Assembly: GCA_003577305.1 (NCBI GenBank) | Contig: QEVL01000003.1 | Span: forward strand, 124,001-188,000 | DNA from: Burkholderiales bacterium | GTDB lineage: Bacteria; Pseudomonadota; Gammaproteobacteria; Burkholderiales; Burkholderiaceae_E | Length of the DNA stretch: 64,000 nt | Reading direction: 5' to 3' | Part shown: positions 39,211-59,628 of the stretch, piece by piece | Layout of the letters: every line of letters starts with the position of its first letter | How positions within the stretch are numbered: position 1 is the stretch's first letter | Notes under the pieces: generated by a model | The model's input: the letters and a program-made list of their open reading frames with translations, nothing else | What the model was told of the DNA's origin: nothing | Database searches by the model: none | Made by a program: the position numbers and the translations under genes

Positions 39211-39830
39211 CTACGCGCTGCAGGACGACCGACGCCAGTCGCCGGCCCGAATCCGACGTGCGTGAATCCGGAACCTGACCGCCAACCACCGCGAACGCAC
39301 CCCCGGGAATCGACAACGGGCCGATCCCGAAGCGGGATTGCTCCAGCGAGAACGACCGGCGCACCGCGAACTCGTCGGCGCCCCGATCGACCCCTGCGTC
39401 GACATCCACAGGCGCTGTCGTTCCATGCAGGGTGATCTCGGCCCGCAGCGGTCGTGCGTCGCCCACGACACCGATTCCGCGCACCGCCACCAGCATCTCG
39501 GCGGATGCCGGTCGGCTTCCAGAACCTTCCCGAGCATGTTCCGACGCGTACCGGCGACGTCGGGCGCCGCGAGGCCTGAGACGTCGCGACTCGAGACCAC
39601 GTGATCGTGCCCGAACTGCGCAAGCGTGCCCGACGACGAATTCGCCGCGCATCCTCGCGCCGCCGGCGTCTTCCGACCAGCTGAACGGGACTTCGATCGT
39701 CTGCTGCACGCCCTTCAGCGTCAACGTCCCGCGCGCAAGGCAGCGACCGGGTCGGCGCTGCGGATGTCCGTCGCCCGGAACGTCGCCTGGGGATGCCGCG
39801 CGAAGTCGAACTACTGGGTGCCGTGATCCC
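39211..39830 (-). pseudogene. YceI-family protein remnants (several frameshifts)
   Basis: Minus-strand pieces in changing frames resemble YceI lipocalin-like domains. The first gives FDFARHPQATFRATDIRSAD, then GTLTLKGVQQTIEVPFSWSED and ARMRGEFVVG. The second gives FGHDHVVSSRDVSGLA, RRNMLGKVLEADRHP, then ASAEMLVAVRGIGVVGD and EITLHGTTAPVDV, SLEQSRFGIGPLSIPGGAFAVVGG, and VRFRIHARRI with a stop at 39211. The first half ends where the second begins, so two YceI-type genes may have been joined by a deletion. At least three frame changes make it non-functional. Confidence 0.7.
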
Positions 39831-39924
39831 GGGCGTTCGCGCGCCACGGGCGGCAAGACCGGCGAGGACCTTCGACAACCACGTCATCCGGACCGTGCCT
39901 GGCCGGAAGAGAAAGGTCCTCCAC

Positions 39925-40965: not shown

Positions 40966-40987
40966 TCGTGGGATCGCGACAGAACGG

Positions 40988-41689
40988 TCAGGGAGCGAGG
41001 TCGAACACCAGCACCTCGGCATCGGACCCGTTGGCGAGCACGATCCGGTTCTCGCCTTCCAGCAACACCGCATCGCCGCCGCTCAACGCGTGTCCGTTCA
41101 CCTCGAGCGATCCGCGCACCAGATGCACGTAGCCCTTGCGTGCCGGGTCGAGCGCGAGTTCCGCACGTTCGCCGCCGTCGAACAGACCCGCGTACAGCAT
41201 CGCGTCCGCGTGAATCGTAACCGAGCCTTGCGCCCCATCGGGCGATGCCACGAGGCGCAGCACGCCGCGCTTCTCGGCGGCCGGGATCGTCTTCTGCTCG
41301 TAGCCCGGCGCAATCCCGGTCGCATCCGGCTCGATCCAGATCTGCAGGAAGTGGGTCGTCCGGCCTTCGGCGTGGTTGAACTCGCTGTGCCGCACGCCGG
41401 TGCCCGCGCTCATGCGCTGCACGTCACCCGGTGGAATGCCGACGACGTTGCCCATGCTGTCGCGATGGGCCAGCTCGCCCGACAGCACGTAGCTGACGAT
41501 CTCCATGTCGCGGTGGCCGTGCTCGCCGAAGCCTGTGCCCGGGGCCACCCGGTCTTCGTTGATCACGCGCAGGTTGCCCCAGCCCATGTGCGCCGGATCG
41601 TGGTAGCCGGCGAACGAGAATGAGTGGTAGCTCTTCAGCCAGCCGTGATCGGCGTAGCCGCGGTCCCGTGACTTGCGAATCGTGAGCAT
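40988..41689 (-). CDS. Pirin-family (bicupin) protein
   Basis: Pirin/YhaK-type protein of 233 residues, possibly a quercetinase or redox-linked regulator. The N-terminal cupin has WLKSYHSFSFAGYHDPAHMGWGNLRVINEDRV, FGEHGHRDMEIVSYVLSGEL with the metal-binding His residues, and RMSAGTGVRHSEFNH. The C-terminal half ends LEGENRIVLANGSDAEVLVFDL. GGAG precedes the ATG at 41689 by 8 bases, favouring it over an in-frame start at 41725. It converges with terC. Confidence 0.92.
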   Translation of the reverse strand: MLTIRKSRDRGYADHGWLKSYHSFSFAGYHDPAHMGWGNLRVINEDRVAPGTGFGEHGHRDMEIVSYVLSGELAHRDSMGNVVGIPPGDVQRMSAGTGVRHSEFNHAEGRTTHFLQIWIEPDATGIAPGYEQKTIPAAEKRGVLRLVASPDGAQGSVTIHADAMLYAGLFDGGERAELALDPARKGYVHLVRGSLEVNGHALSGGDAVLLEGENRIVLANGSDAEVLVFDLAP

Positions 41690-46876: not shown

Positions 46877-46914
46877 TGAGCCTGCAACCGGAAGTCCGGA
46901 AAGCCCGTCGCCGA

Positions 46915-48435
46915 CTACCGGTCGGCGCAGGTGCGCGCCGGGCGCGCGCTGGTGCAGCGCGTGCGCTTCCACTCGCGTAATGCGTCGGCGACGCGCTCGA
47001 TTCCGGCCCGGATGCGAGCCTCGTCGAGGGAGGAGTAGCCAAAAAGGAGGGTCTTGTCGCTGTAGGCGCAATCGCCGAAATCATGTGCCGCGCCCGATCG
47101 GAGCGAATAGACGCCGACAGCCCGTTCGGCCGCGAGAGCCTGCAGTTCCGCCGCGCTCGGGAAGCCGGCAGGGAGGTGCCACGCGAGGTGCATGCCTGAG
47201 TCGGTTCCGGTCAACATCACATTGCCGAAGTGATTGCGCAGGCTGTCGATCAGGCAGTCGCGGCGCTCGAGATAGGTTCGCCGGATCCTGCGCAGGTGGG
47301 TGTCGTAGGCGCCACTCGCGATGAATTCGGCCAGCACCGCCTGATCGAGCCAGGCATGTCCGTTGTCGAGCAAGGCCTTGGCCGTGCGCGCGGGCTCGAT
47401 GAGGTGGCGGGGCAGCACCAGATAGCCCACTCGCAGGCCGGTGCCGACCGACTTGGAGAAGGTTCCGAGATAGATCACGCTTTCGGCCTGATCGAGCCCC
47501 ATCAGTGCCATGAGCGGCGATCCGCGATAGCGGAAATCGCTGTCGTAGTCGTCCTCCACGACATACGCGCCGGTCTGCCGCGCCCAATCGAGCAGCCTCA
47601 TCCGGCGTTCGAGCGACAGCGTGAAGCCCATCGGATACTGATGCGATGGGGTCAGGTGGACGAGTGCCGCACCGGCGGGCGGCAACGCATCGACGCACAG
47701 GCCGTTTTCGTCTACCGGTACCGGTATCACCTCCGCCCTGTAGCTCTCGAACAGGTAGGCCGCGCCCTGGTACGAGGGGTTCTCGGTCACCACGCGCGTT
47801 CCTTCCCGCAGCAAGAGGCGTGCGATGAGGTTCAGCCCTTGCTGCGCGCCGGCGACCACGATGATCTGGTCGGACTCGACCTTCATGCCGCGTGCCGGCC
47901 GCAAGTGATCGGCGATCGCAGCGCGCAACTCGAACAGGCCAGTGGGATCGCGATATTCGGTGAAGCCGGAGTCGGCCCTCTCGAGCACCTGATTGACGAG
48001 GCGACGCCACGTGCTCAGCGGAAACAGGGTCGGGTCGAGGCGCCCGAGCCAGAAATCGAATTCCAGCTTGCCCGGACTCACTACCGCCTGCGCTCGACCC
48101 CGGAACGCAAGGCTCGACCGGGGGAATCGCCTGCCGGCCGACATGCGATCCGCAATCCCGTCGGCATCGACCCTCAACGAGGAGTCGGGCAGATCGTGGC
48201 TCACGTAAGTACCGAGCGCTGACCGCGTCTGCAGGTAGCCCTCGGCGCTCAGACGCTCGTAAGCCAGCACAACCGTATTGCGGGAAACGCCGAGCTGGCG
48301 TGCCAGCAAGCGGCTCGGCGGAACCGGTGTTCCGGGTCTGAGCCCTGCGCCGAGGATCAGGCCACGCAGCTGCTCGAACAGCTGTCGCTGAAGCGATTGG
48401 CGCCCCGATGGGTCGAGCGAAACCGGAAGCTCCAT
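46915..48435 (-). CDS. MocR/PdxR-type regulator (GntR HTH fused to aminotransferase fold)
   Basis: Transcription factor of 506 residues. The N-terminal winged helix has LRGLILGAGLRPGTPVPPSRLLARQLGVSRNTVVLAYERLSAEGYL. The fold-type I aminotransferase-like domain carries YRDPTGLFELRAAIADHL, the pyridine-ring region VVAGAQQGLNLIARLL, EDDYDSDFRYRGSP and TFSKSVGTGLRVGYL with the PLP lysine. MocR proteins sense PLP or an amino compound. ATG 48435 is used (a GTG lies one codon upstream). It follows cycB of the hao cluster on the same strand after 142 bases and might regulate that cluster; this is inference. Confidence 0.9.
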   Translation of the reverse strand: MELPVSLDPSGRQSLQRQLFEQLRGLILGAGLRPGTPVPPSRLLARQLGVSRNTVVLAYERLSAEGYLQTRSALGTYVSHDLPDSSLRVDADGIADRMSAGRRFPRSSLAFRGRAQAVVSPGKLEFDFWLGRLDPTLFPLSTWRRLVNQVLERADSGFTEYRDPTGLFELRAAIADHLRPARGMKVESDQIIVVAGAQQGLNLIARLLLREGTRVVTENPSYQGAAYLFESYRAEVIPVPVDENGLCVDALPPAGAALVHLTPSHQYPMGFTLSLERRMRLLDWARQTGAYVVEDDYDSDFRYRGSPLMALMGLDQAESVIYLGTFSKSVGTGLRVGYLVLPRHLIEPARTAKALLDNGHAWLDQAVLAEFIASGAYDTHLRRIRRTYLERRDCLIDSLRNHFGNVMLTGTDSGMHLAWHLPAGFPSAAELQALAAERAVGVYSLRSGAAHDFGDCAYSDKTLLFGYSSLDEARIRAGIERVADALREWKRTRCTSARPARTCADR

Positions 48436-48577
48436 CACGACTCGGCTCCGGTGGTCTACCTTCCGGCTTTAAGCTTATCGTGATTTGCGGCTGCTTTGCC
48501 AGGACCAGCAGCCCGGAGGACGATGGTGCCAGCGCTACCATCGCTGCGGCACCCCGCGGCACACATCGCATCGTCAG

Positions 48578-49153
48578 TCAGTCTTCCTTCAGCACCATTT
48601 CGCCCGCGACCAGGCTCTTGTCGAGGTCGGTTTCGGGGACTTCCTTGTGGACGAGATTCTGGTGACAGTCGATGCAGGTGGCACCGGCCGACCCGAGGCT
48701 GCGGTGGGCCAGCTTGCCCTCCGGCGTGACGGGCCGCGGGTCGCGATGACAGCGCCGGCAGGTCAGGCTGTCGAGGCGCTTCATCTGCATGCGCGCCTCG
48801 TGGGCCATCTGCAGGCGTCGCTCGTCGAAGAGGCCGATGTCCGAGTAGTCGTTGGTCATCTCGCGCCACAGATCGCGCGCACCGTCGACCACGTGGGCCC
48901 GGACCGCGAGGTGAAAGTTCTCGATTCCCTGGGGAATGTGACAATCCTTGCACTGCGGATCGGCGCCCAGACGACCGAAGTGCGCGGACCTGGCCAACTC
49001 CTTTGCGGGGTAGGTCATCGAGTGGCAACTGGTGCAGAACCCCTGGGTCGAGAGCGCCGCCTCGCCGCCCACGGCCAGAACCGCCACTGCGAGCCCGATC
49101 ACTACACAGAACAGCGTCGCCGACAGCCCCCTCTTGACGAACCATGCGCACAT
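48578..49153 (-). CDS. cycB: Tetrahaem cytochrome cM552, NapC/NirT-type quinone reductase
   Basis: Membrane-anchored tetrahaem cytochrome of 191 residues. An uncleaved helix lies at ~11-33, then CxxCH motifs at C40-H44, C68-H72, C132-H136 and C160-H164. The blocks GGEAALSTQGFCTSCHSMTYP, CKDCHIPQGIENFHLAV and GATCIDCHQNLVHKEVP match cytochrome cM552 of ammonia oxidisers as I recall it. Expected role: pass electrons from cytochrome c554 to ubiquinone. The ATG shares one base with the cycA stop (TAATG). A generic NapC/NrfH would fit the fold, but the context makes CycB far more likely. Confidence 0.92.
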   Translation of the reverse strand: MCAWFVKRGLSATLFCVVIGLAVAVLAVGGEAALSTQGFCTSCHSMTYPAKELARSAHFGRLGADPQCKDCHIPQGIENFHLAVRAHVVDGARDLWREMTNDYSDIGLFDERRLQMAHEARMQMKRLDSLTCRRCHRDPRPVTPEGKLAHRSLGSAGATCIDCHQNLVHKEVPETDLDKSLVAGEMVLKED

Positions 49154-49881
49154 TACCGGCGCTCGTCCTTTCCGATCGGCCTGGCCTTGGCCTGCAACTC
49201 CTCGTGAAACGGAGGCAGCGGCGGCCCGGTGAACGTCCCCTCGAGCTTGAAATGCTCGTGCATCGCCTTGGCGTCACGCACCGCTTTGTCGAATTCGAAC
49301 CGGTATTTCGCATCGAGTTCCGGCGCAAAGGGGTTGTAGGGCGCCTGCGCCCCCTTCCAGGACGAACCGCGGTAATTCAGGTGGCAAGCGTTGCAGCGCT
49401 CGACGAATCCGAAGTCCTGGCCGGCATCGGCCAGACTCTGCCGCGGCGAAGTCAGCTTGTTCTTGTCGAAGCGTTCGGCTGCCTCCCGGTGCAGGTTCTG
49501 GTAGCGCCCACCGGGCCCGTGACAGGACTCGCAACTGACCCCGACAAGGTAGATCGCGGGGTCTCCGGGGTCATACCCACCCTCCCTGCCGAGTCCGGTG
49601 ACATGGCAGCCGAGACAATCCTTGTCCTTCGAGTAATCCTTCGCCGGATCGAGCCTTGCCCGGCGCTTGGCGTCCGGGCGCACACCCGGCTTGAGCAGGT
49701 CGAGCGCCTTGGCGTGGCCGGTCTTCCTCCACGACTGGCTCTGGCTCTTGTGGCACGACGCACATCTCCTGAATCCCTCGTAGGCCGGCTCGGCAGCCGG
49801 CACAACCGTCGTCCACGTCAGGAGGGTCAGCACCAGGGCGGCGATGCGCGCTGCGCACGAAAACGGATGCGTCTGCGTCAT
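49153..49881 (-). CDS. cycA: Tetrahaem cytochrome c554
   Basis: Periplasmic electron acceptor of hydroxylamine dehydrogenase, 242 residues. A signal peptide (~10-30, ending VVPAA) is followed by CxxCH motifs at C40-H44, C89-H93, C117-H121 and C163-H167. GRYQNLHREAAERFDKNK and CNACHLNYRGSSWKGAQAPYNPF, AKAMHEHFKLEG match c554 of Nitrosomonas almost block by block in memory. GGGAGGAGG lies 7 bases before the ATG at 49881, deciding the start. Gene order haoA-haoB-cycA-cycB confirms the assignment. Some c554 proteins also reduce NO. Confidence 0.95.
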   Translation of the reverse strand: MTQTHPFSCAARIAALVLTLLTWTTVVPAAEPAYEGFRRCASCHKSQSQSWRKTGHAKALDLLKPGVRPDAKRRARLDPAKDYSKDKDCLGCHVTGLGREGGYDPGDPAIYLVGVSCESCHGPGGRYQNLHREAAERFDKNKLTSPRQSLADAGQDFGFVERCNACHLNYRGSSWKGAQAPYNPFAPELDAKYRFEFDKAVRDAKAMHEHFKLEGTFTGPPLPPFHEELQAKARPIGKDERR

Positions 49882-49906
49882 CGAAAACCTCCTCCCCATT
49901 GCTCCG

Positions 49907-50980
49907 TCACGAGGCGGCGGGCGCGGAACCCTCGGGTCGGGGTTGCGCGGAAAGCCTGAAGACCCAGTACGGGCCCTGTTGGTGAACGATCCGGGGAGCG
50001 TCGAGCGTGAACGGATTCGAGGTGCTGAACGGAAGCAACCGGGCAATCAGCGTTTTCTTCGACTCGGGCGTCGTCAGGAAAAAGACCCGCAGGACCGCCG
50101 GATCGCGTGCGTCGATCGTGTACGATTCGTGGCCCTGTTCCCGAAGCCAGGCCTTGACGGTCGCGATCGTGCCGTGAAGCCCGGCGCTGCGCGGGAAGTC
50201 TCGATAACCGATCCCCAGGCGATCGGGCCGCAGCATCCCCGCACGGTAGGCGTCGACGATCTGCACGATCAGGTACGTCTCACCGGAACCCGCGAGCGCG
50301 CGCAGGGCGGCCAACCCATCCGATTCCTCGGAGACGAGCGCGTCCACGTAACGCTCGAAACGCGCGGCTGCTTCGCTCCCGCGCGCGGCCTGCCAGAACT
50401 GCTCCTCGGCGCTCTCGATCACGCTGCGTACGCGGCGCCACTGCGCCGGCAGCAGCAAGGGTTGCGCCAGATTCGTGTCGTTCACGGGCGTCATGCCGGC
50501 GAGCAACCCGAGTTGGCGCGACGTGTCCCACCACGACAGTACGGTGGCTCCCGCGGGCGCATGCCGGGCCACTGCGCGTGCGAGCGCCGTCACGTCAGTT
50601 GCGCGCGTGTCGAAGGCCAGCGTCGGTTCGGCAGTGCGGTTCTCCCAGCCCAGCAGCACGGGAGCCCTGCCAGGCATGGTTGCCGCGTAGCCAACTGCCA
50701 CCGCTTGCTCCACGCCGTCAGCCATGAGTTCAAGCTTGCGCACCGGCAGGGCCGGAGTGTCCTCGAGATCGAGTTCACGAAAGCTCGCAGCCTCGCCTTC
50801 GGCGACGACCTGGTAGCGATATGGCATCTGCGGCAGATCGGACAGCCCGGCGGCGAGCAGGCTCCATAGCGCGAACCCGGCGAGGACAAGGGCGAACCCG
50901 GCCGCGAGCGCCCAGCGGCGGCGCCCTGCCGGGGCCCGGACAGGTGCTGCGGATACGCGATCAGCGGTTGTCGCGTCCAC
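49907..50980 (-). CDS. haoB: Hydroxylamine oxidation protein HaoB
   Basis: Membrane-anchored periplasmic protein of 357 residues; one helix lies at ~22-45 ([24 protein letters not shown]). The rest has [40 protein letters not shown] and [32 protein letters not shown], in line with HaoB of ammonia oxidisers and methanotrophs. It has no CxxCH motif. Its biochemical role is not established; it is found next to haoA and may assist HAO assembly or membrane attachment. Its start lies inside the last 20 bases of haoA. Confidence 0.92.
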
Positions 50981-52688
50981 GGCGGGAACGCCAGATCAGT
51001 GCACCGCCGCCCAGCACCAGAACACCGCCCAACCCTACGAACCAGATGCTGTCGGATCCAGTCGGAGCGAGCAGCGCCAGAGCCGCACGCGACCCGACAC
51101 CCGATCCCTTGGGTTGCGTCGTGGCCGCTCGCTCCCGGATCTGCGTATCGAAGTCCATGATCTTCGAGTAGGAGCGAATCAGCGGTTCCCAGCCCTCGGT
51201 GTAGGTCCACCCGCCAGGATTGACGTGAGCGACGCCGACGAAGAGCTTCGGCAGGTCGTTCTCGCCCATCGCCTTCGCTTCGAACTCGATGTTCGTCGGG
51301 TTGTTACCCTTGCTCCACATGAGCTGGAAGAACTCCATCGGCGCATCTTTCTCCGGTGCCGGTGGCGCCGGACGGTTGGTCTTCTGACCGGGCAACAGGC
51401 CATCCGCGTGCAGCCTGCTCACGACAGCCTGGGCTTCCTTGACCTTCTCCAGGCCCTGCAGCGTCGCCTTGTCCATCAGGTCCAGATAGGCGCGCGAGAA
51501 GCGCTCGGAGTGGCACTGCGTGCAGGTCTTCACCCAGGCGTCGAGCCGCTGCTTCGACCATTCGGAATTGACCACCGCTTCGGCGATGCCCGGCACGAGC
51601 GGGTAGTTCGCCCAGCGCACCTTGCGCACCACGTTGTGGCCGTACTTGCCCTTGTACTCCATGTGGCAGCTCTGGCAGGTGGGCGCAGTCTGCCCACCTT
51701 TGGCGATTGCATCCTTGAGCGGCACGTTCCAGTTCCAGTTCGAGCCGAGCATGGTGTACTGGGTACCGTGCTTGGAGAGCAGGTAGGCTTCGATGTTGTT
51801 GTGGTCGATGCCGCTGTGGCAAGTGCCGCAGGCTTCGGGCTTGCGCGCTTCGATGAGCGAGAACGAATGTCGCGTGTGACACGTGTCGCACTTGTTCTGG
51901 TTCATGTGGCACGCGGTGCAGCCCTCGGCGATCTCCCTTTGCGGCATGCCGGCCCAGATTCCCGTCTCCACGTTGTCCTGGTAGTCGAGCGCGTGCGAAG
52001 GCCGGCCCCTGGTTCTCTCGACGCCCTGGGGCCATACGGCGGTATCGCGCTCGCTTTCGCGTTCGGCGAACTCGGTCAGGTGACAGCTCGCGCAGACATC
52101 GGCGGTGGGCATGCGCAGATCCTTGCGGTGATCTGCCTTGGCACTCCGATTGATGTCGACGTGACAGTCGATGCAGCCGACCTCTTTCAGGCTGTCGTTT
52201 GCGGCAAGCTTGCCGAGCGAACGCAGATTGCGCTCGACCTCTTCGAGTCTTGCCTTCTGGTAATAGCGCGCGTCGGATGGCTTGAGTGTGCGGATCTTGC
52301 CGAGGTTGGCGTGCGCGCTCTGCCTCCATTGATGCACCCAGCCCGGAGATTCCTTCTCGTGGCAATCGACGCAATCCTTGCGCCCCGCGATCTCGGCCAC
52401 CGAGCTCGGAGGTGAGTAGAAGCTGGCCGGATCGAAATACTTGCTGAACGGAATCGGTTGCCACAGGTCGGCGAACTTGCCCTTGCCCGCCCCCTGCGCC
52501 GGATCCCGATACCGCTTGACCAGTGCGTCGTACAGTTCCTTCGGCGGCGCGTCGGATCGGATCCCGAGAGCGTCGTAGAGTTCCTTGGGGATGTCGGCTG
52601 CGGCGCTGCCGGCGAGCGTCGCCCCGAAGACGAACAGGAACGCCCGCAGCAACTGCTGCAGGCGCCTGCGACAGTGAACTCGATGCAT
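50961..52688 (-). CDS. haoA: Hydroxylamine dehydrogenase (HAO), octahaem P460 enzyme
   Basis: Octahaem enzyme of 575 residues that oxidises hydroxylamine in the periplasm (to NO or nitrite). A signal peptide ends near SAAA30. CxxCH motifs are at C106, C172, C199, C257, C267, C287, C338 and C389. The haem P460 cross-link tyrosine is expected at Tyr496 in [11 protein letters not shown], intact. Asp295-His296 (SGIDHNN) and Tyr362 (WANYPLVPG) line up with catalytic residues I recall from Nitrosomonas. A C-terminal helix ([19 protein letters not shown]) followed by RSRRGRDNR would anchor it. GGGGGAG precedes the ATG at 52688. The cross-link Tyr distinguishes it from reductive HAO/epsilon-type relatives. 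Confidence 0.97.
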
Positions 52689-53097
52689 GTCGATCTCCCC
52701 CCACCGTTCGACCGCAGCACTCGAACACCCGCGCCACCCTCGAGCGGCCGTGTCACGCTCGGCCCTTCCATCGGGCCTTCGCACGACATGGACATGTTTG
52801 TCTGTCCGCGTGGCAAGGTAAAGTGCCGGGCGGGCCGTGAATCGTGGTGCCATTGGTACCGCGGACAGACTGCAGATGAGGCCGAGAGTCGGCAGCCATC
52901 GCCGATCTCGCGCGTCGCGGCCGGGCCGCCGGGCGATACGGTGGCTGGCCACGCCCGTGCACGCGTGGAACCCGATGCGCTTCCTGGCCGGGTCGCCCCG
53001 GCATCGGGTACAGCACCGGCATGCCAGGCCAGGTTCTAGAAGGTATACTTTCCGTCGATCTTTCCTGACCCCCATCACCACCGGAGAATCCGCAATC
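52689..53097. promoter_or_regulatory. 409-bp divergent regulatory region between haoA and the DUF2249-nnrS pair
   Basis: No gene is seen. It contains a near-palindrome ACATG-GA-CATGT (near 52789-52800) and a perfect 11-bp inverted repeat, GTCTGTCCGCG (52800-52810) and CGCGGACAGAC (52860-52870). On the plus strand TATACT (53044-53049) is a good -10 for the DUF2249 gene, about 49 bases before its ATG, with a weak -35. No convincing sigma-70 or sigma-54 promoter for haoA, and no FNR/NnrR or NsrR consensus, could be identified by eye. Confidence 0.45.
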
Positions 53098-53400
53098 ATG
53101 AGAGAAGTCATCCGCCCGCGAGCAGAGCCCGTAACGATCGGCGAGCCAGCTCCCGCGAAAATCGACGTCCGCAGCATCGCCCCGCACGAGCGTCACGAGC
53201 TGATCTTCTCCTCCTTCAACGGCCTGCCGCAGGGGGGCGCGCTGGAGCTGGTCAACGATCACGATCCCGTGCCGCTGTACCGCCAGTTCAAGTCGAATTT
53301 CCACGGCCTCTTCACCTGGGACTACCTCGAGCAGGGCCCGGAACTCTGGCGCGTGCGCATCGGCAAGGCTCCGGGCAACTGCTGCGGCAGCTGCAGTTGA
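53098..53400 (+). CDS. DUF2249-domain protein
   Basis: Small protein of 100 residues. The DUF2249 core (TusA/SirA-like fold) has [44 protein letters not shown] and WRVRIGKAP. It ends in the cysteine cluster GNCCGSCS, a metal- or redox-active candidate. Such genes often lie beside nnrS and nitric-oxide genes in denitrifiers; their function is not settled. GGAG lies 11-12 bases before the ATG, rather far. Its stop overlaps the TTG start of nnrS, so the two are translationally coupled. Confidence 0.85.
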
Positions 53401-54560
53401 CGCGCGGGCACGGCTTCGCGCTCTGGCAACTGGGCTTTCGTCCTTTCTACCTGCTGGCAGCGATCTTCGCTGCACTGTCGGTCGGTAGCTGGACGGCCCG
53501 GTTTGCCGGCTACCTGCCGCACGGCGGGTACCCCAGCCCCCACGTCGACCCCTTCTGGCACGCACACGAACTGATCTTCGGCTACACGTTCGCGGTCGCC
53601 GCCGGTTTCCTCTTCGCGATCGTCCGCAGCTGGACCCATCGGCCCACACCGACGGGGCCGGCACTGGCCGCGATCGCCGCGCTGTGGCTCGCGGCGCGCG
53701 TGCTCGTGTTCACGCCGTGGAGCGCAGCCGTTGCCGCGACGAACCTGGCGTTCTCGCTCGCGGTCGCCGCCGGCATTGGCGTGCCCCTGTGGCAGGCGCG
53801 CGATCGGCACAACTATTTCTTCATCGGACTCGTGCTGCTGATTTCGACCGCACTGGTCCTCTTCCATCTCGCCACGCTCGATCTCGTCGCGCTCCCGGCC
53901 TGGGCAGGCGTGCAGCTCGGCATCGACGTCGTCCTGCTCCTGATTGCTGCGGTGGCCGGCCGGGTCGTGCCGATCTACACCAACAAGGCCGTACCGGGCG
54001 CGCGCGCGCGTCGCTCGCAGAACGTCGAGCGGCTGGCGATGGGCGGCCTCGCCGTGTTGCTGGCTGCCGACCTCTTTCGACTTTCGGGCCTGGCGCAGAT
54101 CGTTCTCACTGCTGCGCTCGCGATCGTGCACGCCTGGCGGCTCTACAAGTGGGATTTCCGCAGCGCCCTGCGCGTACCGCTGCTGTGGGTGCTCTACATT
54201 GCGTATGCGTGGATTCCCGTGCACCTGGCATTGCGCGCCACGTACGAAGCCGGCTGGACCGCGCGCCCGCTCGCAATCCACGCCTTCACCGTCGGTGCGA
54301 TCGGCGGTTTGACGATGGCCATGATGATTCGCACCGCCCGCGCCCACACCGGTCGTGCGCTCGAAGCGGACGGCTACGACATCGCAAGTTGCGTGCTGCT
54401 CGCCGCAGCGGCAGTGATCCGCGTGTTCTGGCCGCTGATCCAGCCCGGGTACCACGTGCAGGCCACCGTGTATTCGGGAGCGCTGTGGTCGGCCGCATTC
54501 GTGGTCTTCGTATTGCGCCACGGGCCGGCGCTCGTGCGACCATCCCGTTCGGCTCCCTGA
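53397..54560 (+). CDS. nnrS: NnrS family protein (NO-responsive haem/copper membrane protein)
   Basis: Polytopic membrane protein of 387 residues with about twelve helices. Family blocks are LWQLGFRPFYLLAAIFAALSV, PFWHAHELIFGYTFAVAAGFLF with conserved His, GRVVPIYTNKAVPG, and HAFTVGAIGGLTMAMMIRTARAHTGR. NnrS proteins contain haem and copper in denitrifiers and protect against NO-related stress. Start is TTG at 53397, overlapping the DUF2249 stop (TTGA). Placement opposite the hao operon fits a role in coping with NO made by hydroxylamine oxidation. Confidence 0.93.
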   Translation: MTRGHGFALWQLGFRPFYLLAAIFAALSVGSWTARFAGYLPHGGYPSPHVDPFWHAHELIFGYTFAVAAGFLFAIVRSWTHRPTPTGPALAAIAALWLAARVLVFTPWSAAVAATNLAFSLAVAAGIGVPLWQARDRHNYFFIGLVLLISTALVLFHLATLDLVALPAWAGVQLGIDVVLLLIAAVAGRVVPIYTNKAVPGARARRSQNVERLAMGGLAVLLAADLFRLSGLAQIVLTAALAIVHAWRLYKWDFRSALRVPLLWVLYIAYAWIPVHLALRATYEAGWTARPLAIHAFTVGAIGGLTMAMMIRTARAHTGRALEADGYDIASCVLLAAAAVIRVFWPLIQPGYHVQATVYSGALWSAAFVVFVLRHGPALVRPSRSAP

Positions 54561-54581: not shown

Positions 54582-54710
54582 ATCGACGTCTGTCATCACG
54601 TCGACGACCGCGTCGATGATTTGCGGCGACTGCGCGAAGCGCCGAAGCCGGGCGCACGCGTTGCGACCATCGACTTCGTGCCGGAATGCCACTCGAGCGT
54701 TTTCGGCTAG
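54582..54710 (+). pseudogene. Class I methyltransferase fragment
   Basis: A 42-codon plus-strand frame reads IDVCHHVDDRVDDLRRLREA then PKPGARVATIDFVPECHSSVFG and a TAG at 54708-54710. DVxHHxxDRxxxLRRLxxAxxPGxRVAxxDF is the end-of-Rossmann pattern of SAM-dependent methyltransferases. No start or N-terminal half is found; nnrS ends 22 bases before. It is best read as a small leftover of a lost gene. Confidence 0.45.
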
Positions 54711-55138
54711 ACCGTGGCCAGATGCGCCTGCACTTGCCGCTTTCCGACGTGACGCAGTGAAGCAAGCTTCGCCTGCTGATCGGCACGAGGGTTCGTCGCG
54801 CCGCGCTCCCAGTTGTAGACCGTCTGTGCCGACACGCCCATCATCTTCGCCAGATCGGCAGCCGACAGCCCCAGACGTTTACGCGTGGATACGAGCCCCT
54901 TCGGCACGAACCGCACCTGTTTCGTGGCCGCCTCGGGTTCGGATACTGCGCCTGCCTTCTTCAGCTCTCTCTTCAGCGTCGTCACCTGCCCCTGCAAGGA
55001 AGCGACCTGGCTTTTGAGGTTCGCGATCTCGCGTCGCTGCTGCGCCGTCGCGCTAGTCGTTTTCACTTGTGCTGCCCTGACTTCCTTGCGGGCAAGACGG
55101 GTAATCTCTTGTTTCAGTATTTTGGCGATATTGGACAT
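54707..55138 (-). CDS. XRE-type DNA-binding protein with N-terminal coiled coil
   Basis: Protein of 143 residues. Residues 1-65 are charged and heptad-like (ILKQEITRLARKEVRAAQ, QRREIANLKSQVASLQGQVTTLKRELKK), a likely coiled-coil dimeriser. Residues ~85-130 form a helix-turn-helix: TRKRLGLSAADLAKMMGVSAQTVYNWERGATNP. The ATG at 55138 is used because similarity to such proteins starts at SNIAKILKQE; an in-frame extension to 55270 is unlikely. Target unknown; it may be a small regulator of the accessory zone. Confidence 0.85.
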   Translation of the reverse strand: MSNIAKILKQEITRLARKEVRAAQVKTTSATAQQRREIANLKSQVASLQGQVTTLKRELKKAGAVSEPEAATKQVRFVPKGLVSTRKRLGLSAADLAKMMGVSAQTVYNWERGATNPRADQQAKLASLRHVGKRQVQAHLATV

Positions 55139-55563
55139 CGAACTCTCTGTGGCGTCATGTCGAACGATTATGTCCGTCGGCAAGGGTACGGCGCAATAGA
55201 AGGCTGCACCATATAGCAGATTGCACGACAGGTGCCGAACTGCCTGATTGCCGTTTTTGTGCGACTCCAAATCCCTTCGCTATTCGCTCCGGCCGCAACG
55301 CTCTTCATCGGACGCGAAAAATGCGCTCCCGAAGAGGAGCGCTTTCAAGACAAATGTTCCGTAAGCTCCCCTGACCGGTTGACATTCGAAATTGAACTCT
55401 TCTGGGATTGGCTGTCGGCGGAAGCCCGATGAAGACCAAGTTCAGTGACTCGCCAAGCGTGGCGCTTCTGCATCAGGGCGACGCGGGCATGCTAGCTGCG
55501 TCTGCTCGGGTCAAAGGTTAAGCGTCCAACATGCCGTCGCCTTCGAGCGTCACTGCGGCGTGG
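55139..55563. other. Intergenic stretch, less GC-rich, no convincing gene
   Basis: This 425-bp gap between the XRE gene and the TPR-like gene is visibly richer in A/T than its surroundings. A 66-codon open frame at 55232-55432 has no recognisable domain and no ribosome site. The only structure I can support is the terminator at 55316-55342. Lower GC is compatible with transferred DNA, but no ends or mobile genes are seen. Confidence 0.5.
55316..55342 (-). terminator. Rho-independent terminator of the TPR-like gene
   Basis: On the minus strand GCGCTCC, loop TCTTCG, GGAGCGC is followed directly by ATTTTT: a 7-bp perfect GC-rich stem with a T-run. It lies about 220 bases beyond the stop of the minus-strand gene at 55564, in the correct orientation. 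Confidence 0.65.
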
Positions 55564-56766
55564 CTATTGTTCGTTCGCAGACTCGGTAATGGCGCCGCGG
55601 ATTGCCGACCGAGCTGCCTTCCCCGCCCACGCGTAACGGACTGGATCGTCGGCCAGCAAGAATGCTCGCAGCGCTGCCTGTCGCTCGGGGTCGGCGCGGA
55701 AGTAGATGCGTCTCAGATCCTGATCGACATCGTCGACCGTCGCGCCTCGCTCCACGGCCTTGCGGTACCAGTCTCGACCGACGTCGTGGTCGCCGTTCTC
55801 CATGTGGATCGCTCCCAGCAGAGTGCAGGGCCGAAAGTCATGGGGCGTGAGCGCATGCGCCCTTTCCCCCAGGCGAAGCGCTTCTTCCCGACGTTCGAGG
55901 TCGCGCTTGACCCCGCCCCAGGTGGTAGCAAACGCCGACCTGAGCTTGCACGATTTCAGCAACTTCGTTTCGACGGTCGAGAGCAGCGCATCGGCCTCCT
56001 GCGCCTTGCCGCACTTCCGCAGCTGGCTGCTGGCATTGATTGCCATCCATGGGTCACGCGTGCGCTCGTACTCGGTGCGGAAGAACTTCGCCTCCAGGCG
56101 ATGGTAAGCGGCCTTCAGTTCCTTCGAGAAGTAGGCTGCTCCTCCCTTCACCAGCCAGGCGTAGTCCTCTGCGCAGATGCGTCGCCCCGCATCCACGCTG
56201 TTCAATATCGCCATCAGGTGGCCGAAGCGGTCGGGTTCGACGAAGTCGTGGATTCCATACCTGGCTCGCAGCTCACGGTTCCTGACTTTGGCGATGTACC
56301 TTGGATCGCTTTCCCGGGCCAGACGCTCTGCCTCACGCCTCTTGAAAAACAGGTCCGCCTTCGCCTGCATCGCGGCGGCGCGTTCGCGATCCGCTGTTTC
56401 TCGGGCCTGGCTGGCGGCCATCGCCGCTTCGATTCGGAGCGACTGCTCGGCGAGCGCCAACTGCCTGAAGCGCTCATAGGACAACTCGCCGATCGCAAAG
56501 CTATGCAGAGCGGCCAGCCCGTGCTTCTTCAGAAACTCCAGCGACAGCCGGGTCACCGGTTTGGCTTGTCGAAGCGTTTCGAGAATCTTCTGGAGGCTCG
56601 CACAGGGGATCGTCGCGCCTGGCAGGTCCTGCACGCAGAAATGCAGTGCGGTCTCGAGATGCGATCGGGCGGCTTCAGGCACCCCGCTTCCCGGCGAAGA
56701 ACGACCCGGAGCCGGCCGGACGTTCGGGTCTAGGTGCCTGCCGGGTTTCGGCGATACTGGTGGCAT
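55564..56766 (-). CDS. Conserved-looking TPR-like protein of unknown function
   Basis: About 400 residues; no named family recognised. The N-terminal third has VQDLPGATIPCASLQKILETLRQ. A charged helical stretch (RIEAAMAASQARETADRERAAAMQAKADLFFKRREAERLARESDPRYIAKVRNRELRARYGI) looks like a coiled coil. The C-terminal half has TPR-like helix pairs (AINASSQLRKCGKAQEADALLS; EALRLGERAHALTPHDFRPCTLLGAIHMENGDHDVGRDWYRKAVERG). Similar proteins occur scattered in proteobacterial accessory regions, as I recall. Start is uncertain: ATG 56766 or GTG 56682. It lies beside the 3' end of the tRNA gene at 56927. Confidence 0.65.
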   Translation of the reverse strand: MPPVSPKPGRHLDPNVRPAPGRSSPGSGVPEAARSHLETALHFCVQDLPGATIPCASLQKILETLRQAKPVTRLSLEFLKKHGLAALHSFAIGELSYERFRQLALAEQSLRIEAAMAASQARETADRERAAAMQAKADLFFKRREAERLARESDPRYIAKVRNRELRARYGIHDFVEPDRFGHLMAILNSVDAGRRICAEDYAWLVKGGAAYFSKELKAAYHRLEAKFFRTEYERTRDPWMAINASSQLRKCGKAQEADALLSTVETKLLKSCKLRSAFATTWGGVKRDLERREEALRLGERAHALTPHDFRPCTLLGAIHMENGDHDVGRDWYRKAVERGATVDDVDQDLRRIYFRADPERQAALRAFLLADDPVRYAWAGKAARSAIRGAITESANEQ

Positions 56767-56926
56767 CCCCGAACCCCACAGCAAGCGACGGCCCTGGACA
56801 ACTCCGGTCCGATGGATGGCGCGATTCTGAAGACTGCCGCCGCTGGCCCCAGTTCGACAGACCGCTGGCGAGCCAAAGAAACCCAGAGGGGGGATCCGCC
56901 CATCCGGCGTGCCCACCCCGCAAGAC

Positions 56927-57004
56927 TGGTGGGCCCCCCGGGAGTCGAACCCGGCACCAACGGATTATGAGTCCGCTGCTCTGACCATCATGAGCTAGAG
57001 GCCC
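56927..57004 (-). tRNA. tRNA with CAU anticodon, probably tRNA-Ile2 (lysidine-modified)
   Basis: A full cloverleaf reads on the minus strand with encoded CCA. Acceptor stem GGGCCTC/GGGGCCC has one T-G pair; the D arm is GCTC/GAGC; the anticodon arm GCGGA-CTCATAA-TCCGT; the T arm CCGGG-TTCGACT-CCCGG. The CAU anticodon with this anticodon stem and TTGGTG variable region resembles tRNA-Ile2, read after TilS modification, rather than initiator or elongator Met. Gene identity as tRNA is certain; the isotype is a judgement. Confidence 0.93.
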
Positions 57005-57927: not shown

Positions 57928-58164
57928 ATGCGCACCACTGTCCGCCTCGATGAGCACCTGTTGGCCCAGGCCAGGCAATACGCCGCAGCCTCGGGGAAAA
58001 CGCTGACCGCCGTGATCGAGGACGCGCTTCGCGAAGCGCTCGCGCGTCGCAACACGAAGATGCGGCGCAAGCCCGTTCGCCTGCGCACCTGCGGTGGGGG
58101 CGGAGTCCTTCCAGGCGTGGACATCGACGATTCGGCATCCCTGCTCGAGTTGATGGAGTCCTGA
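57928..58164 (+). CDS. Type II antitoxin, VapB-like ribbon-helix-helix protein
   Basis: Antitoxin of 78 residues. The N-terminal RHH DNA-binding fold is MRTTVRLDEHLLAQARQYAA with TLTAVIEDALREALARR; the C-terminal toxin-binding tail is PGVDIDDSASLLELME. It is expected to neutralise the PIN toxin encoded two bases later and to repress their shared promoter through the palindrome at 57893-57908. Gene order antitoxin-toxin and tight spacing are typical. Confidence 0.9.
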   Translation: MRTTVRLDEHLLAQARQYAAASGKTLTAVIEDALREALARRNTKMRRKPVRLRTCGGGGVLPGVDIDDSASLLELMES

Positions 58165-58166
58165 GG

Positions 58167-58595
58167 GTGCTGCTCTGCGACGTCAACGTCCTCGTGTACG
58201 CGCATCGCAAGGACAGCACGGCGCACGTCGCCTGCCGCGCGTGGCTCGAGGCGCTGGTCAACGGCGACGAGGCCTACGGGGTCTCGGAACTCGTCCTGAG
58301 CGGATTCGTCCGGATCGTCACTCACCCGAAGGTCTTTTCCAGGCCAAGCCCGCTCCCGGACGCGCTGGCCTTCGCGGGGCAACTGCGCGACCAGCCAAAC
58401 GCCGTGCCGATCGGCCCGGGTCCGCGCCACTGGGAGATCTTCCAGGCCTTGTGCCTGGCGCACGCGGTGCGCGGCAACCTGGTCCCCGATGCCTACCTCG
58501 CCGCGATGGCGATCGAATCGGGCTGCGAGTGGGTGACGACGGACCGGGATTTCTCCCGGTTCGAAGGCCTGCGTACGCGAAGCCCCGTGTCCTGA
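58167..58595 (+). CDS. Type II toxin, VapC-like PIN-domain ribonuclease
   Basis: PIN-domain RNase of 142 residues. Likely catalytic acids are Asp5 (LLCDVNVLVYAH), Glu41 (GVSELVLSGFVRI), Asp108 (NLVPDAYLAAMAIESG) and Asp126 (TTDRDFSRF). This is the subfamily with VRIVTHPKVFSRP after the second acid. It begins with GTG at 58167, two bases after the antitoxin stop. VapC toxins usually cut tRNA or rRNA; the target here is unknown. Confidence 0.9.
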   Translation: MLLCDVNVLVYAHRKDSTAHVACRAWLEALVNGDEAYGVSELVLSGFVRIVTHPKVFSRPSPLPDALAFAGQLRDQPNAVPIGPGPRHWEIFQALCLAHAVRGNLVPDAYLAAMAIESGCEWVTTDRDFSRFEGLRTRSPVS

Positions 58596-58688
58596 GCCGC
58601 GCGCGCCCGACCGCTACCTATCCCGTCACCGCGCCGAAAGCCGCCGCGACGCCTCGGGCGAAGCCGGGATGCGCGGCTGCGGCGCGGG

Positions 58689-58826
58689 TCACAGGCCGAG
58701 AATCTTCTGGATGATCGACTTCGCGATGAAGCCGAGCATGCCGAAAGCAGGCACGAAGAACAGTACGAAAGTGCCCCGGCGGCCGGCCTTCGATTCGCGC
58801 GCCAGCTGCCAGATGATGAACGGCAT
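58689..58826 (-). CDS. Small predicted membrane protein, 45 residues
   Basis: A short minus-strand frame between the two toxin-antitoxin modules starts MPFIIWQLARESKAGRRGTF and continues VLFFVPAFGMLGFIAKSIIQ to KILGL and a TGA. It has one or two hydrophobic helices and positively charged inner loops, unlike random shadow frames in this GC-rich DNA. Function unknown. It does not belong to any family I can name, and the ribosome site (GGACGG) is only fair. Confidence 0.45.
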   Translation of the reverse strand: MPFIIWQLARESKAGRRGTFVLFFVPAFGMLGFIAKSIIQKILGL

Positions 58827-58933
58827 GACCGTCCGTTCAGTGAGCCGCGGACGCCGCGCCCCGGAGCGGCGCGCCGCGCGCGGGCCCGATCGCGCCGGCG
58901 TGACCGGTCATCCGGGGCCTCGGCGCAGGAATC

Positions 58934-59362
58934 TCACGGGCGCAGGCGCTCGAACTTCAATCCGCCGAAGCGCTCGAAGTCGCTATCGAAGGACGCGAGG
59001 GTTGCCCCATGTTCGATGGCGAGCGCCGCCAGATGCGCGTCGGTCACGAAGTTCCCGGCAGTGCCGGATCTCGACAGCAGATTCTCCAGGACTTCGGGGT
59101 GCCGGTCGGTGGGATGCAGGACGCGCACCCTTGGTTGCTCCAGCCAGAAGTTCATGGTGCGCAGGGCGTCGTGCAGGCCAAGAGGCCGCTGCAGGATGCG
59201 CGGATGCGTTGCGATGCGGACGAATCCCAGCAGGCCGGCCCAGGAAAGGCCTACCCCCGCAGGCGACGCAAAAGCGTCGCGCAGCCACGAAATCGCCGTG
59301 GCGTGCTGCGGCGCTGCCGAGTTCACTGCATAGAGCAGGACGCTGGTGTCGGGCTGCTTCAT
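58934..59362 (-). CDS. Second VapC-like PIN-domain toxin
   Basis: PIN-domain protein of 142 residues, same length and subfamily as the toxin at 58167: PDTSVLLYAVN (Asp5), LLGFVRIATHPRILQRP, NFVTDAHLAALAIEHGATLASFDSDFERF with the C-terminal Asp residues. At the second acid position the usual Glu is Trp (GLSWAGLLGF against GVSELVLSGF in the first toxin). This is seen in some subfamily members I recall, so it need not be inactive. Its ATG overlaps the antitoxin stop (ATGA). Confidence 0.9.
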   Translation of the reverse strand: MKQPDTSVLLYAVNSAAPQHATAISWLRDAFASPAGVGLSWAGLLGFVRIATHPRILQRPLGLHDALRTMNFWLEQPRVRVLHPTDRHPEVLENLLSRSGTAGNFVTDAHLAALAIEHGATLASFDSDFERFGGLKFERLRP

Positions 59363-59628
59363 CGGCCGCGACGCAACTTCTCGATCAACTCGACGTCCTC
59401 GAGTTCGCCGGCGAGCACGGTGGCCCTGGTGAGATCCATCGCAGCCGCGCCCATGTCGAAGACGGGTTGCCTGTATGGCCGGCCGGCCTTCTTCGACTTG
59501 CCCGGGGACGCCCGCAGCCCCTCGCGGACCGCGTCGTTGAGTACCTGCTTGAACGGCGCGCCCGTTTCACGCATGGCGCGCTCGATGAGCACCTCTACGT
59601 CGGGATCGATGGTGACCGTGGTACGCAT
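59359..59628 (-). CDS. Second VapB-like antitoxin
   Basis: Antitoxin of 89 residues: N-terminal RHH stretch MRTTVTIDPDVEVLIERAMRE with PFKQVLNDAVREGLRA, then a basic linker (GKSKKAGRPYRQP), and a toxin-binding C-terminus (AMDLTRATVLAGELEDVELIEKL). It overlaps the second toxin by four bases. Directly before its ATG lies a 16-bp-arm inverted repeat at 59628-59666, the likely operator. Confidence 0.9.
   Translation of the reverse strand: MRTTVTIDPDVEVLIERAMRETGAPFKQVLNDAVREGLRASPGKSKKAGRPYRQPVFDMGAAAMDLTRATVLAGELEDVELIEKLRRGR

What the first reader, a model, noticed from the sequence alone, without database searches (positions are those of the whole stretch)
48578..52688. Complete haoA-haoB-cycA-cycB hydroxylamine oxidation cluster in a Burkholderiales-like genome
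Four overlapping or closely spaced minus-strand genes reproduce the core energy module of ammonia-oxidising bacteria in its classic order. HaoA has eight CxxCH motifs, the GGWTYTEGW motif with the P460 cross-link Tyr (496), and the DH and Tyr residues of the active site, so an oxidative enzyme is expected. CycA and CycB have four haem motifs each. The surrounding genes look like a heterotrophic betaproteobacterium with TRAP/KDG catabolism, not a classical Nitrosomonas-type genome. Either this is a new ammonia oxidiser or a heterotroph that gains energy from, or detoxifies, hydroxylamine.
Basis: partly seen in the sequence, partly recalled or inferred. Interest (0 to 1): 0.95.

Follow-up and report, generated by a model that had tools for sequence, protein, structure and literature searches.

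The report
Hydroxylamine oxidation operon without ammonia oxidation
A bacterium that appears unable to oxidise ammonia carries the full nitrifier enzyme set for burning hydroxylamine, next to a vitamin-B6-dependent gene switch that travels with it, and it also has carbon-fixation genes, so it may live partly on a toxic by-product of nitrifiers.

Summary
In detail: haoA-haoB-cycA-cycB at 48578-52688 (-), with 8, 4 and 4 haem motifs and the P460 tyrosine. It is probably not a new ammonia oxidiser: AMO subunit A was not found in any of 18 held genomes of its genus, this one included, while 7 of 9 nitrifier-family genomes ring. Nor is it a plain heterotroph: it has form I RuBisCO, phosphoribulokinase and cbbX.

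Where enough flank was fetched, it sits beside hao in 15 of 16 AMO-negative loci and in 1 of 11 AMO/PMO-positive loci; Ruegeria pomeroyi has it too. Hydroxylamine is a classic PLP poison, so I propose that the regulator senses it directly (inferred).

Beta-AOB and comammox HaoA are nested among AMO-less HaoA (one alternative is only marginally rejected). A four-gene hao cluster in another betaproteobacterium is in print (PMC8402940); no held paper names both MocR and haoA. HaoB's predicted fold weakly resembles the soluble domain of STT3/PglB oligosaccharyltransferases.

The parts
50961..52688 (-). haoA, octahaem hydroxylamine dehydrogenase (575 aa; 8 CxxCH, P460 tyrosine Y496; signal peptide and C-terminal hydrophobic anchor judged by eye)
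   Evidence: (PF13447 467.7 bits)
49907..50980 (-). haoB, membrane-anchored protein (one predicted N-terminal helix plus soluble domain with conserved WWD)
   Evidence: (TIGR04392 298.1 bits, cut-off 200)
49153..49881 (-). cycA, tetrahaem cytochrome, c554-like
   Evidence: below the NCBIfam CycA equivalog cut-off (330.1 against 400)
48578..49153 (-). cycB, NapC/NirT-family tetrahaem cytochrome (cM552-like quinone reductase); overlaps the end of cycA by 1 base
   Evidence: (PF03264)
46915..48438 (-). MocR-type regulator (GntR winged helix plus PLP aminotransferase-fold domain, PLP lysine K329), about 140 bases after cycB
53098..53400 (+). DUF2249 protein, divergent from haoA (context; not found next to hao in the other loci)
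53397..54560 (+). NnrS-family protein (context; not found next to hao in the other loci)
   Evidence: (PF05940 316.8 bits)
46905..52884 (.). extent of the block shared with congener G411 at 85.8% DNA identity; no other match over 150 bases in the 20 kb of G411 compared

Best explanation
This is a horizontally moving hydroxylamine-oxidation module of five genes (haoA-haoB-cycA-cycB-mocR) in a facultatively autotrophic betaproteobacterium that cannot itself make hydroxylamine from ammonia. HaoA oxidises periplasmic hydroxylamine that comes from outside, for example leaked by neighbouring ammonia oxidisers. CycA takes the electrons and CycB hands them to the quinone pool, so hydroxylamine is removed and yields energy that the Calvin cycle could use. 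The linked MocR protein is the module's own switch and probably senses hydroxylamine through its pyridoxal phosphate (oxime formation). Shown by sequence: the genes and their key residues, no AMO subunit A found, presence of RuBisCO and phosphoribulokinase, and linkage of MocR with hao. Inferred: substrate, direction, electron path, source of hydroxylamine, and the sensing chemistry.
For: HaoA matches N. europaea HAO structures over nearly its full length with the P460 tyrosine and the D-H pair. HaoB, c554-like CycA and NapC-type CycB are all present. A published account ties use of hydroxylamine electrons to CycB, employed by AOB and not by nitritating methanotrophs (PMC3772326, passages). 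AMO subunit A: 0 of 18 genomes of the genus, 0 of 16 other hao-bearing genomes (one of them, L102, is congener G355 again) against 5 of 5 genomes put in as nitrifier controls; 7 of 9 nitrifier-family genomes ring. Calvin-cycle enzymes on contig C25. In the genus, 4 of 4 genomes with haoAB-cycAB have RuBisCO better than E 1e-100, against 3 of 14 others (Fisher 0.011, groups chosen after seeing the data). MocR is beside hao in 15 of 16 AMO-negative loci with at least 3 kb upstream and 6 kb downstream of haoA, and in 6 of 13 with less. In the genus, each of 8 hao loci has an adjacent MocR, and no HaoA-negative genome has a MocR above 40% identity at E <= 1e-40. R. pomeroyi has haoA-haoB-MocR. Another MocR regulator, DnfR, governs the dnf cluster of Alcaligenes (PMC12575085, passages).
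Against: No activity, expression or growth data. The genome is 90.7% complete in 46 contigs, and 2 of 9 nitrifier-family genomes that carry HaoA gave no AMO hit, so one negative is weak. Only AMO subunit A was searched. The MocR scores above the NCBIfam PdxR cut-off (442.9 against 320), so it could sense PLP instead. The PLP lysine is R or N in 2 of 23 hao-linked MocRs. Six distinct MocR genes in the same tree part are not beside hao. L082 has hao and no MocR within 7.8 kb. One of three hao copies of the ammonia oxidiser Nitrosovibrio Nv4 has the MocR, and a GntR gene lies beside haoA of Nitrosococcus oceani, so the link is not limited to AMO-less organisms. In Ca. [quoted passage not shown]
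Confidence: 0.6

Rival explanations
1. Detoxification only: the module removes hydroxylamine (own or foreign) and its electrons are not used for growth, as described for methanotrophs.
For: hao comes and goes within the genus (7 of 18 genomes); NnrS lies next to it; the two methanotroph-like genomes have haoAB without cycAB in the DNA fetched, in line with PMC3772326 (passages).
Against: cycA and cycB are found with hao in 18 of 29 AMO-negative loci, several of the rest being cut by contig ends, and RuBisCO goes with the full cluster in the genus (post hoc). The type-2 hao loci of the genus and R. pomeroyi lack cycAB in the DNA fetched or annotated and fit detoxification better than this one does.
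Confidence: 0.2
2. The organism is an ammonia oxidiser whose amo genes are missing from the draft assembly.
For: The four-gene order equals that of ammonia oxidisers; it has Calvin-cycle enzymes; 2 of 9 nitrifier-family genomes with HaoA gave no AMO hit.
Against: 0 of 18 genomes of the genus have AMO subunit A, including G411 in 4 contigs; no nirK above cut-off; HaoA is outside the AOB clade.
Confidence: 0.04
3. HAO works in reverse here, reducing NO or nitrite to hydroxylamine or ammonium with electrons from the quinol pool through CycB.
For: CycB is of the NapC/NirT family, which also holds quinol dehydrogenases such as NrfH; the reverse reaction is discussed for HAO of Ca. Desulfobacillus denitrificans (PMC8402940 passages).
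Against: The P460 tyrosine, linked to oxidative HAO (recalled), is invariant in 14 of 14 aligned HaoA, and HaoA sits in one clade with AOB enzymes.
Confidence: 0.12
4. The adjacent MocR gene regulates something other than hao (it is an ordinary PdxR) and its place is incidental.
For: NCBIfam PdxR equivalog cut-off is passed; six other MocR genes in the same part of the tree are not beside hao.
Against: Adjacency holds in three arrangements (downstream same strand, upstream same strand, upstream opposite strand) and in an alphaproteobacterium. HaoA-negative genomes of the genus have no MocR above 40% identity to it at E <= 1e-40.
Confidence: 0.15
5. Chimeric assembly or contamination put the cluster into this contig.
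For: GC is 64-67% over the cluster, at the low end of a window that runs from 62 to 74%.
Against: Same block in a 3.7-Mb contig of another assembly of the genus; same flank genes beside a related cluster in G400.
Confidence: 0.02

Closest known systems
haoA-haoB-cycA-cycB operon of Nitrosomonas, Nitrosospira and comammox Nitrospira
   Same: Same four genes in the same order where the contigs are long enough; HaoA 56-66% identical
   Different: No AMO found in this genome; a MocR gene follows cycB (1 of 11 AMO/PMO-positive loci with full flanks has it); HaoA branches outside the AOB/comammox clade
hao cluster of Candidatus Desulfobacillus denitrificans (Okubo and Takami 2021, PMC8402940; abstract, outline and passages seen)
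   Same: haoA, haoB, c554 and a cytochrome c gene in a denitrifier placed in Rhodocyclales, with an irregular Calvin cycle
   Different: The passages searched mention no linked regulator and do not name amo; I did not have its sequence to compare
haoA-haoB locus of Ruegeria pomeroyi DSS-3 megaplasmid
   Same: haoA (56%), haoB and a MocR gene (43%) together
   Different: No cycAB in the 15.5 kb shown; cytochrome-maturation genes follow instead; AMO was not searched in this organism
DnfR, MocR regulator of the dnf (dirammox) cluster of Alcaligenes
   Same: A MocR-family regulator of genes of hydroxylamine metabolism (PMC12575085 passages)
GntR gene Noc0891 beside haoA of Nitrosococcus oceani (table row in PMC3772326)
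   Same: A GntR-type regulator numbered directly before haoA, the side on which L049, L179, L181 and L182 have a MocR
   Different: Listed only as GntR; whether it is a MocR was not testable here; N. oceani has amo

Membership tests
Oxidative hydroxylamine dehydrogenase (HAO) | Eight CxxCH haem motifs | tested here: met
   8 found
Oxidative hydroxylamine dehydrogenase (HAO) | Tyrosine for the P460 cross-link, and the D-H active-site pair | tested here: met
   Y496, D295 and H296 align with the N. europaea structure (counted by hand); all three invariant in 14 sequences
Oxidative hydroxylamine dehydrogenase (HAO) | Falls in the clade with AOB HAO | tested here: met
   Node 100/100 with AOB, comammox and AMO-less HaoA
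Oxidative hydroxylamine dehydrogenase (HAO) | Oxidises hydroxylamine | not testable with these tools
   needs enzyme
Hydrazine dehydrogenase | NCBIfam NF052343 cut-off | tested here: not met
   115.7 against 900 bits; no NCBIfam model passes its cut-off for HaoA
HaoB | NCBIfam TIGR04392 above cut-off | tested here: met
   298.1 against 200 bits
Cytochrome c554 (CycA) | NCBIfam NF043010 equivalog cut-off | tested here: not met
   330.1 against 400 bits; but E 3.3e-85 to c554 structure 1bvb and Pfam PF13435 above cut-off. I call it c554-like
NapC/NirT family (CycB, cM552) | Pfam PF03264 above cut-off, four CxxCH | tested here: met
   141.8 against 24.1 bits; 4 motifs
Ammonia-oxidising bacterium | Ammonia monooxygenase (PF02461, subunit A) | tested here: not met
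   0 matches in the own genome and 0 of 18 in the genus; 7 of 9 nitrifier-family genomes ring. The own genome is 90.7% complete
Calvin-cycle autotroph | RuBisCO large subunit and phosphoribulokinase | tested here: met
   790 against 438 and 500.6 against 362 bits
Calvin-cycle autotroph | Grows on CO2 | not testable with these tools
   needs an isolate
MocR regulators | GntR winged helix fused to a PLP aminotransferase-fold domain | tested here: met
   PF00392 and PF00155 above cut-off; aligns with GabR 4mgr over both domains
MocR regulators | PLP lysine | tested here: met
   K329 in the window protein; K in 21 of 23 hao-linked rows
PdxR (PLP synthesis regulator) | NCBIfam PdxR cut-off | tested here: met
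   442.9 against 320 bits
PdxR (PLP synthesis regulator) | Controls PLP synthesis genes | not tested
   the regulon was not examined and no pdx search was made
STT3/PglB soluble domain (for HaoB) | Fold similarity | tested here: inconclusive
   3aag E 2.2e-4, but TM-score 0.35 by query and 0.50 by target, rmsd 7.6; only 2 hits at E <= 0.001; the best 14 hits are all from entries with an oligosaccharyltransferase
STT3/PglB soluble domain (for HaoB) | Significant sequence profile match | tested here: not met
   STT3A at E 0.18, aligned on the WWD motif; an unrelated protein scores better (E 0.085); no Pfam STT3 hit
STT3/PglB soluble domain (for HaoB) | Membrane catalytic domain of the transferase | tested here: not met
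   only one predicted N-terminal helix before the soluble domain

The most novel reading that the evidence does not exclude
A widespread, horizontally moving way of life: AMO-less autotrophs that respire hydroxylamine supplied by other microbes, with expression set by a dedicated pyridoxal-phosphate regulator that senses hydroxylamine by oxime formation; and the HAO of beta-proteobacterial ammonia oxidisers and comammox bacteria descends from this AMO-less stock, so hydroxylamine oxidation would predate its pairing with AMO in these lineages.
Probability: 0.25. Interest if true: 0.85.

Novelty: new variant of a known kind. Interest (0 to 1): 0.62.

Why it matters
Hydroxylamine is treated as an intermediate that nitrifiers keep to themselves. 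A regulated hydroxylamine-oxidation module in organisms without AMO that can probably fix CO2 would mean cross-feeding on it, with consequences for NO and N2O budgets and for how hao genes are read in metagenomes. A PLP regulator as a hydroxylamine sensor is directly testable, in Ruegeria pomeroyi for one. The nested tree bears on where the HAO of nitrifiers came from.

Tried and rejected
New ammonia oxidiser: rejected on AMO searches. Chimera: rejected on other genomes of the genus. Plain heterotroph: rejected after RuBisCO and phosphoribulokinase were found. NnrS and DUF2249 as parts of the module: not found beside hao in the other loci. Loss of the GabR carboxylate-binding arginine as a sign of a small ligand: absent in 22 of 22 hao-linked rows that have the column, but also in 18 of 21 other rows, so not specific. 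AlphaFold model of MocR: too weak to use (mean pLDDT 64.3). Promoter and terminator scan: one promoter-like site (0.4 expected) and 4 terminator-like sites (3.8 expected), so nothing above chance to speak of. Search for hao genes beside the second MocR copy of this genome: none there. The Jannaschia plasmid MocR: no hao among its annotated neighbours. MocRs of G026, G025, G078 and G158: no HaoA match in the DNA fetched around them. First count of MocR linkage (21 of 22 against 1 of 9) was uneven: it took every 'yes' whatever the flank, and left two MocR-less copies of Nitrosovibrio Nv4 among the untested loci; one search replaces it (15 of 16 against 1 of 11).

Not done: cytochrome P460, AMO subunits B and C, nirS, nor and nos searches; Nitrosococcus sequences; 16S placement.
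Full report
WHAT IS THERE. On the minus strand of 46915-52688 lie haoA (50961-52688), haoB (49907-50980), cycA (49153-49881), cycB (48578-49153) and, about 140 bases further, a MocR-type regulator (46915-48438). Haem motifs number 8, 4 and 4. HaoA matches solved N. europaea HAO over residues 9-570 at E 2.1e-235; the P460 tyrosine Y496 and the D295-H296 pair are invariant in 14 aligned HaoA. No NCBIfam model passes its cut-off for HaoA; the nearest, hydrazine dehydrogenase, scores 115.7 against 900. HaoB passes its NCBIfam cut-off. CycA is c554-like: it fails the NCBIfam CycA equivalog cut-off (330.1 against 400) but matches c554 structure 1bvb over residues 32-239. CycB is of the NapC/NirT family. 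On the other strand upstream are DUF2249 and NnrS genes, not found next to hao in the other loci.

AMMONIA OXIDATION. The window is part of a 3.12-Mb, 46-contig genome, 90.7% complete. Pfam AMO (subunit A) has no match in it or in any of the 18 held genomes of its genus, this one included, among them G411 in 4 contigs with a 92% identical HaoA. Controls: 7 of 9 genomes of the nitrifier family ring; the other two carry HaoA but gave no hit, which shows how a draft can lose amo. In one search, 5 of 5 genomes put in as nitrifier controls ring and 0 of 16 other hao-bearing genomes do (one further locus, L112, was not held). Of those 16, one (L102) is the congener G355 again, and three (L086, L106, L115) group with nitrifiers in the HaoA tree and may simply be incomplete. 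In one search, of 10 genomes, only the methanotroph-like G680 and G568 and the nitrifier G015 ring. The copper nitrite reductase model gives only matches below cut-off in the own genome, while two of three AOB and one Steroidobacteraceae genome (G414) pass it; 18 of 20 genomes have some weak match.

CARBON FIXATION. RuBisCO large domain scores E 1e-133 on contig C25. The stretch around it holds form I RuBisCO large subunit, a small subunit by position (no NCBIfam RuBisCO hit of its own), CbbX, class 1 fructose-bisphosphatase, phosphoribulokinase and a CbbR-like LysR gene that is below the CbbR equivalog cut-off. G411 and G400 have the same neighbourhood, judged by eye. 16 of 18 genomes of the genus have some RuBisCO-family match, but only 7 (G000, G411, G400, G355, G404, G405, G409) have one better than E 1e-100: 4 of 4 with haoAB-cycAB against 3 of 14 others (Fisher 0.011), or 5 of 7 with any HaoA against 2 of 11 without (0.039). 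These groupings were made after seeing the data and ignore kinship.

DISTRIBUTION AND MOVEMENT. HaoA occurs in 12 of 399 genomes of the order, in 3 of 158 genera, in 7 of 18 of the genus, and in 11 of 369 of the class at a stricter limit. One scan of named genomes kept the best 80 of 228 loci: many are Nitrosomonas, Nitrosospira and Nitrospira, the rest are mostly beta- and gammaproteobacterial assemblies such as Rubrivivax SJ592, Steroidobacteraceae Bin_2 and Rhodocyclaceae SB9. The genus holds three kinds of HaoA: the window kind (G000, G411), a second (G400, G355) and a type-2 kind (G355, G403, G404, G412). Holding the window kind (with SJ592) in one clade with the seven rows of the second kind's clade is rejected (p-AU 1.9e-6, group named after the tree was seen). 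Only the block 46905-52884 is shared with G411, at 85.8% DNA identity, in the 20 kb compared. In G400 the other kind of cluster sits beside the same flank genes (window 39624-41609, 82-90% DNA identity) although HaoA is only 62% identical. For all five genes, among the ten loci compared, G411 is closest and SJ592 second by identity; third place varies. Inference: the unit moves horizontally, with exchange of clusters at one site.

THE REGULATOR. It has a GntR winged helix and an aminotransferase-fold domain with the PLP lysine K329. Among 29 AMO-negative hao loci, 16 have at least 3 kb upstream and 6 kb downstream of haoA, and 15 of these have the MocR (L082 lacks it); of the 13 with less DNA, 6 have it. 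Among 16 AMO/PMO-positive loci, 11 have full flanks and 1 of these has it (one of three copies of Nitrosovibrio Nv4); of 5 with less, none (Fisher 1e-5 on full flanks, not corrected for kinship; several loci share a genome or genus). Arrangements: downstream on the same strand, upstream of haoA on the same strand, or upstream on the opposite strand. In the genus, each of 8 hao loci has one adjacent and no HaoA-negative genome has a MocR above 40% identity at E <= 1e-40. At order level (399 genomes, E <= 1e-95) 7 genomes match: three with HaoA, four without; no nitrifier-family genome is among them. Among 1,525 plasmid records with a match, Ruegeria pomeroyi has the highest bit score of the 15 listed, and its megaplasmid is the only one of 3 plasmid records with a HaoA match that covers over 80% of the query; there the order is haoA, haoB, MocR gene, cytochrome-maturation genes, a TPR gene, hemA. 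In the MocR tree (quick method) all 20 hao-linked rows fall in one strongly supported part with 10 of the 26 other rows (6 distinct genes; several rows are duplicates). Against a PLP mechanism: 2 of 23 hao-linked rows have R or N for the lysine, and NCBI's PdxR model fits above cut-off. For it: hydroxylamine attacks PLP to an oxime (general knowledge, not from a call); DnfR, a MocR regulator, governs the dnf genes of Alcaligenes (PMC12575085, passages) and its ligand was still to be identified (PMC11440038, passage). Its primary papers are not held. A search for papers holding both MocR and haoA found none. A table in PMC3772326 lists a GntR gene, Noc0891, next to haoA of Nitrosococcus oceani, so linkage to a GntR gene is in print as a table row and may not be limited to AMO-less organisms.

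EVOLUTION. With methanotroph-like, alpha, type-2 and G649 HaoA as outgroup, AOB and comammox HaoA sit together (93/91) inside a set of AMO-less HaoA; the node that joins them to the beta AMO-less clade has 99/97 support, while the order of the deeper AMO-less branches is unresolved. Holding all 17 AMO-less rows together is rejected (p-AU 2.8e-8); leaving out L182 the rejection is marginal (0.045). Nitrosococcus is missing from the tree and gain against loss was not compared, so descent of nitrifier HAO from an AMO-less ancestor is a possibility, not a result.

HOW IT MOST LIKELY WORKS. Hydroxylamine from outside is oxidised by HaoA in the periplasm; electrons pass through CycA and CycB to quinone. 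PMC3772326 (passages) says that AOB, unlike nitritating methanotrophs, use CycB for this. With RuBisCO and phosphoribulokinase the cell could use this energy for CO2 fixation. The regulator would switch the operon on with hydroxylamine. Every step of function is inferred.

PRIOR ART. Okubo and Takami 2021 (PMC8402940; abstract, outline and passages) describe haoA, haoB, c554 and cytochrome c genes in Ca. Desulfobacillus denitrificans (Rhodocyclales), with CO2-fixation potential and, of these four genes, expression of haoA and haoB only. So such hao clusters outside the known AOB are in print. In PMC6824324 (passages) a gammaproteobacterium has amo and hao but no known CO2-fixation genes, a different case. 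What seems new here is the conserved regulator, the horizontal unit, the AMO test over a genus, and the tree. Ten paper searches were made; most subscription papers are not held.

HAOB. The AlphaFold model (mean pLDDT 91.7, 48 sequences) has one N-terminal helix and a soluble domain. In PDB, the best 14 Foldseek hits are all from entries that hold an oligosaccharyltransferase (9n9j is listed with STT3A), but similarity is weak: best 3aag, E 2.2e-4, TM 0.35 by query and 0.50 by target, rmsd 7.6, and only 2 hits at E <= 0.001. W150 and D152 are in 48 of 48 and W151 in 47 of 48 aligned HaoB; WWD is in 123 of 129 matched stretches, missing from four short ones and from those of SJ592 and R. pomeroyi. 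A sequence profile puts STT3A on the same WWD stretch, but at E 0.18, below an unrelated protein, and Pfam gives no STT3 hit. I read this as a possible distant relation to the acceptor-binding domain of STT3/PglB (that role of the domain is recalled). That it helps HaoA maturation is a guess.

Noticed in passing
window 49907-50980 (-): HaoB, called of unknown role in the papers seen, has a predicted fold weakly like the soluble domain of STT3/PglB oligosaccharyltransferases, with a conserved WWD motif; sequence support alone is not significant.
   Followed up: partly
L148 9620-10696 (G000:C1:147619-148698, -): A second hao-type MocR in this genome matches P0005 only over about residues 128-487, so the DNA-binding part is not found; it has no hao genes beside it and groups with the regulator of G400; perhaps a relic of another hao cluster.
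   Followed up: partly
L034, L037, L038, L039: A divergent type-2 HaoA (49-51% identical) in the same genus, with MocR directly upstream; haoB is seen in L037 and L039 and no cycAB in the DNA fetched.
   Followed up: partly
L155 (Ruegeria pomeroyi DSS-3 megaplasmid 205801-221291): haoA-haoB-MocR followed by its own cytochrome-maturation genes and hemA.
   Followed up: partly
L191 9783-15824 (G000:C25): Form I RuBisCO operon with CbbX, fructose-bisphosphatase, phosphoribulokinase and a CbbR-like gene.
   Followed up: yes
window 57928-59628: Two pairs of small genes that look by eye like VapBC toxin-antitoxin pairs; no family search was made.
   Followed up: no
window 54707-57004: GC drops to about 62%, with a helix-turn-helix gene, a gene without an NCBIfam match and tRNA-Met; may be an island edge.
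   Followed up: no
L159 (G078:C99) 1-1970: A related MocR lies next to a cytochrome that looks by eye like NapC/NrfH, cut by the contig end.
   Followed up: no
L050 and L112: HaoA on contigs filed under Ca. Anammoxibacter and an alphaproteobacterium groups with gammaproteobacterial and Nitrosomonadaceae HaoA, which suggests mis-binned contigs.
   Followed up: no
L061 12637-14160: Nitrosovibrio sp. Nv4, a true ammonia oxidiser, has a hao-type MocR after one of its three hao copies only.
   Followed up: no
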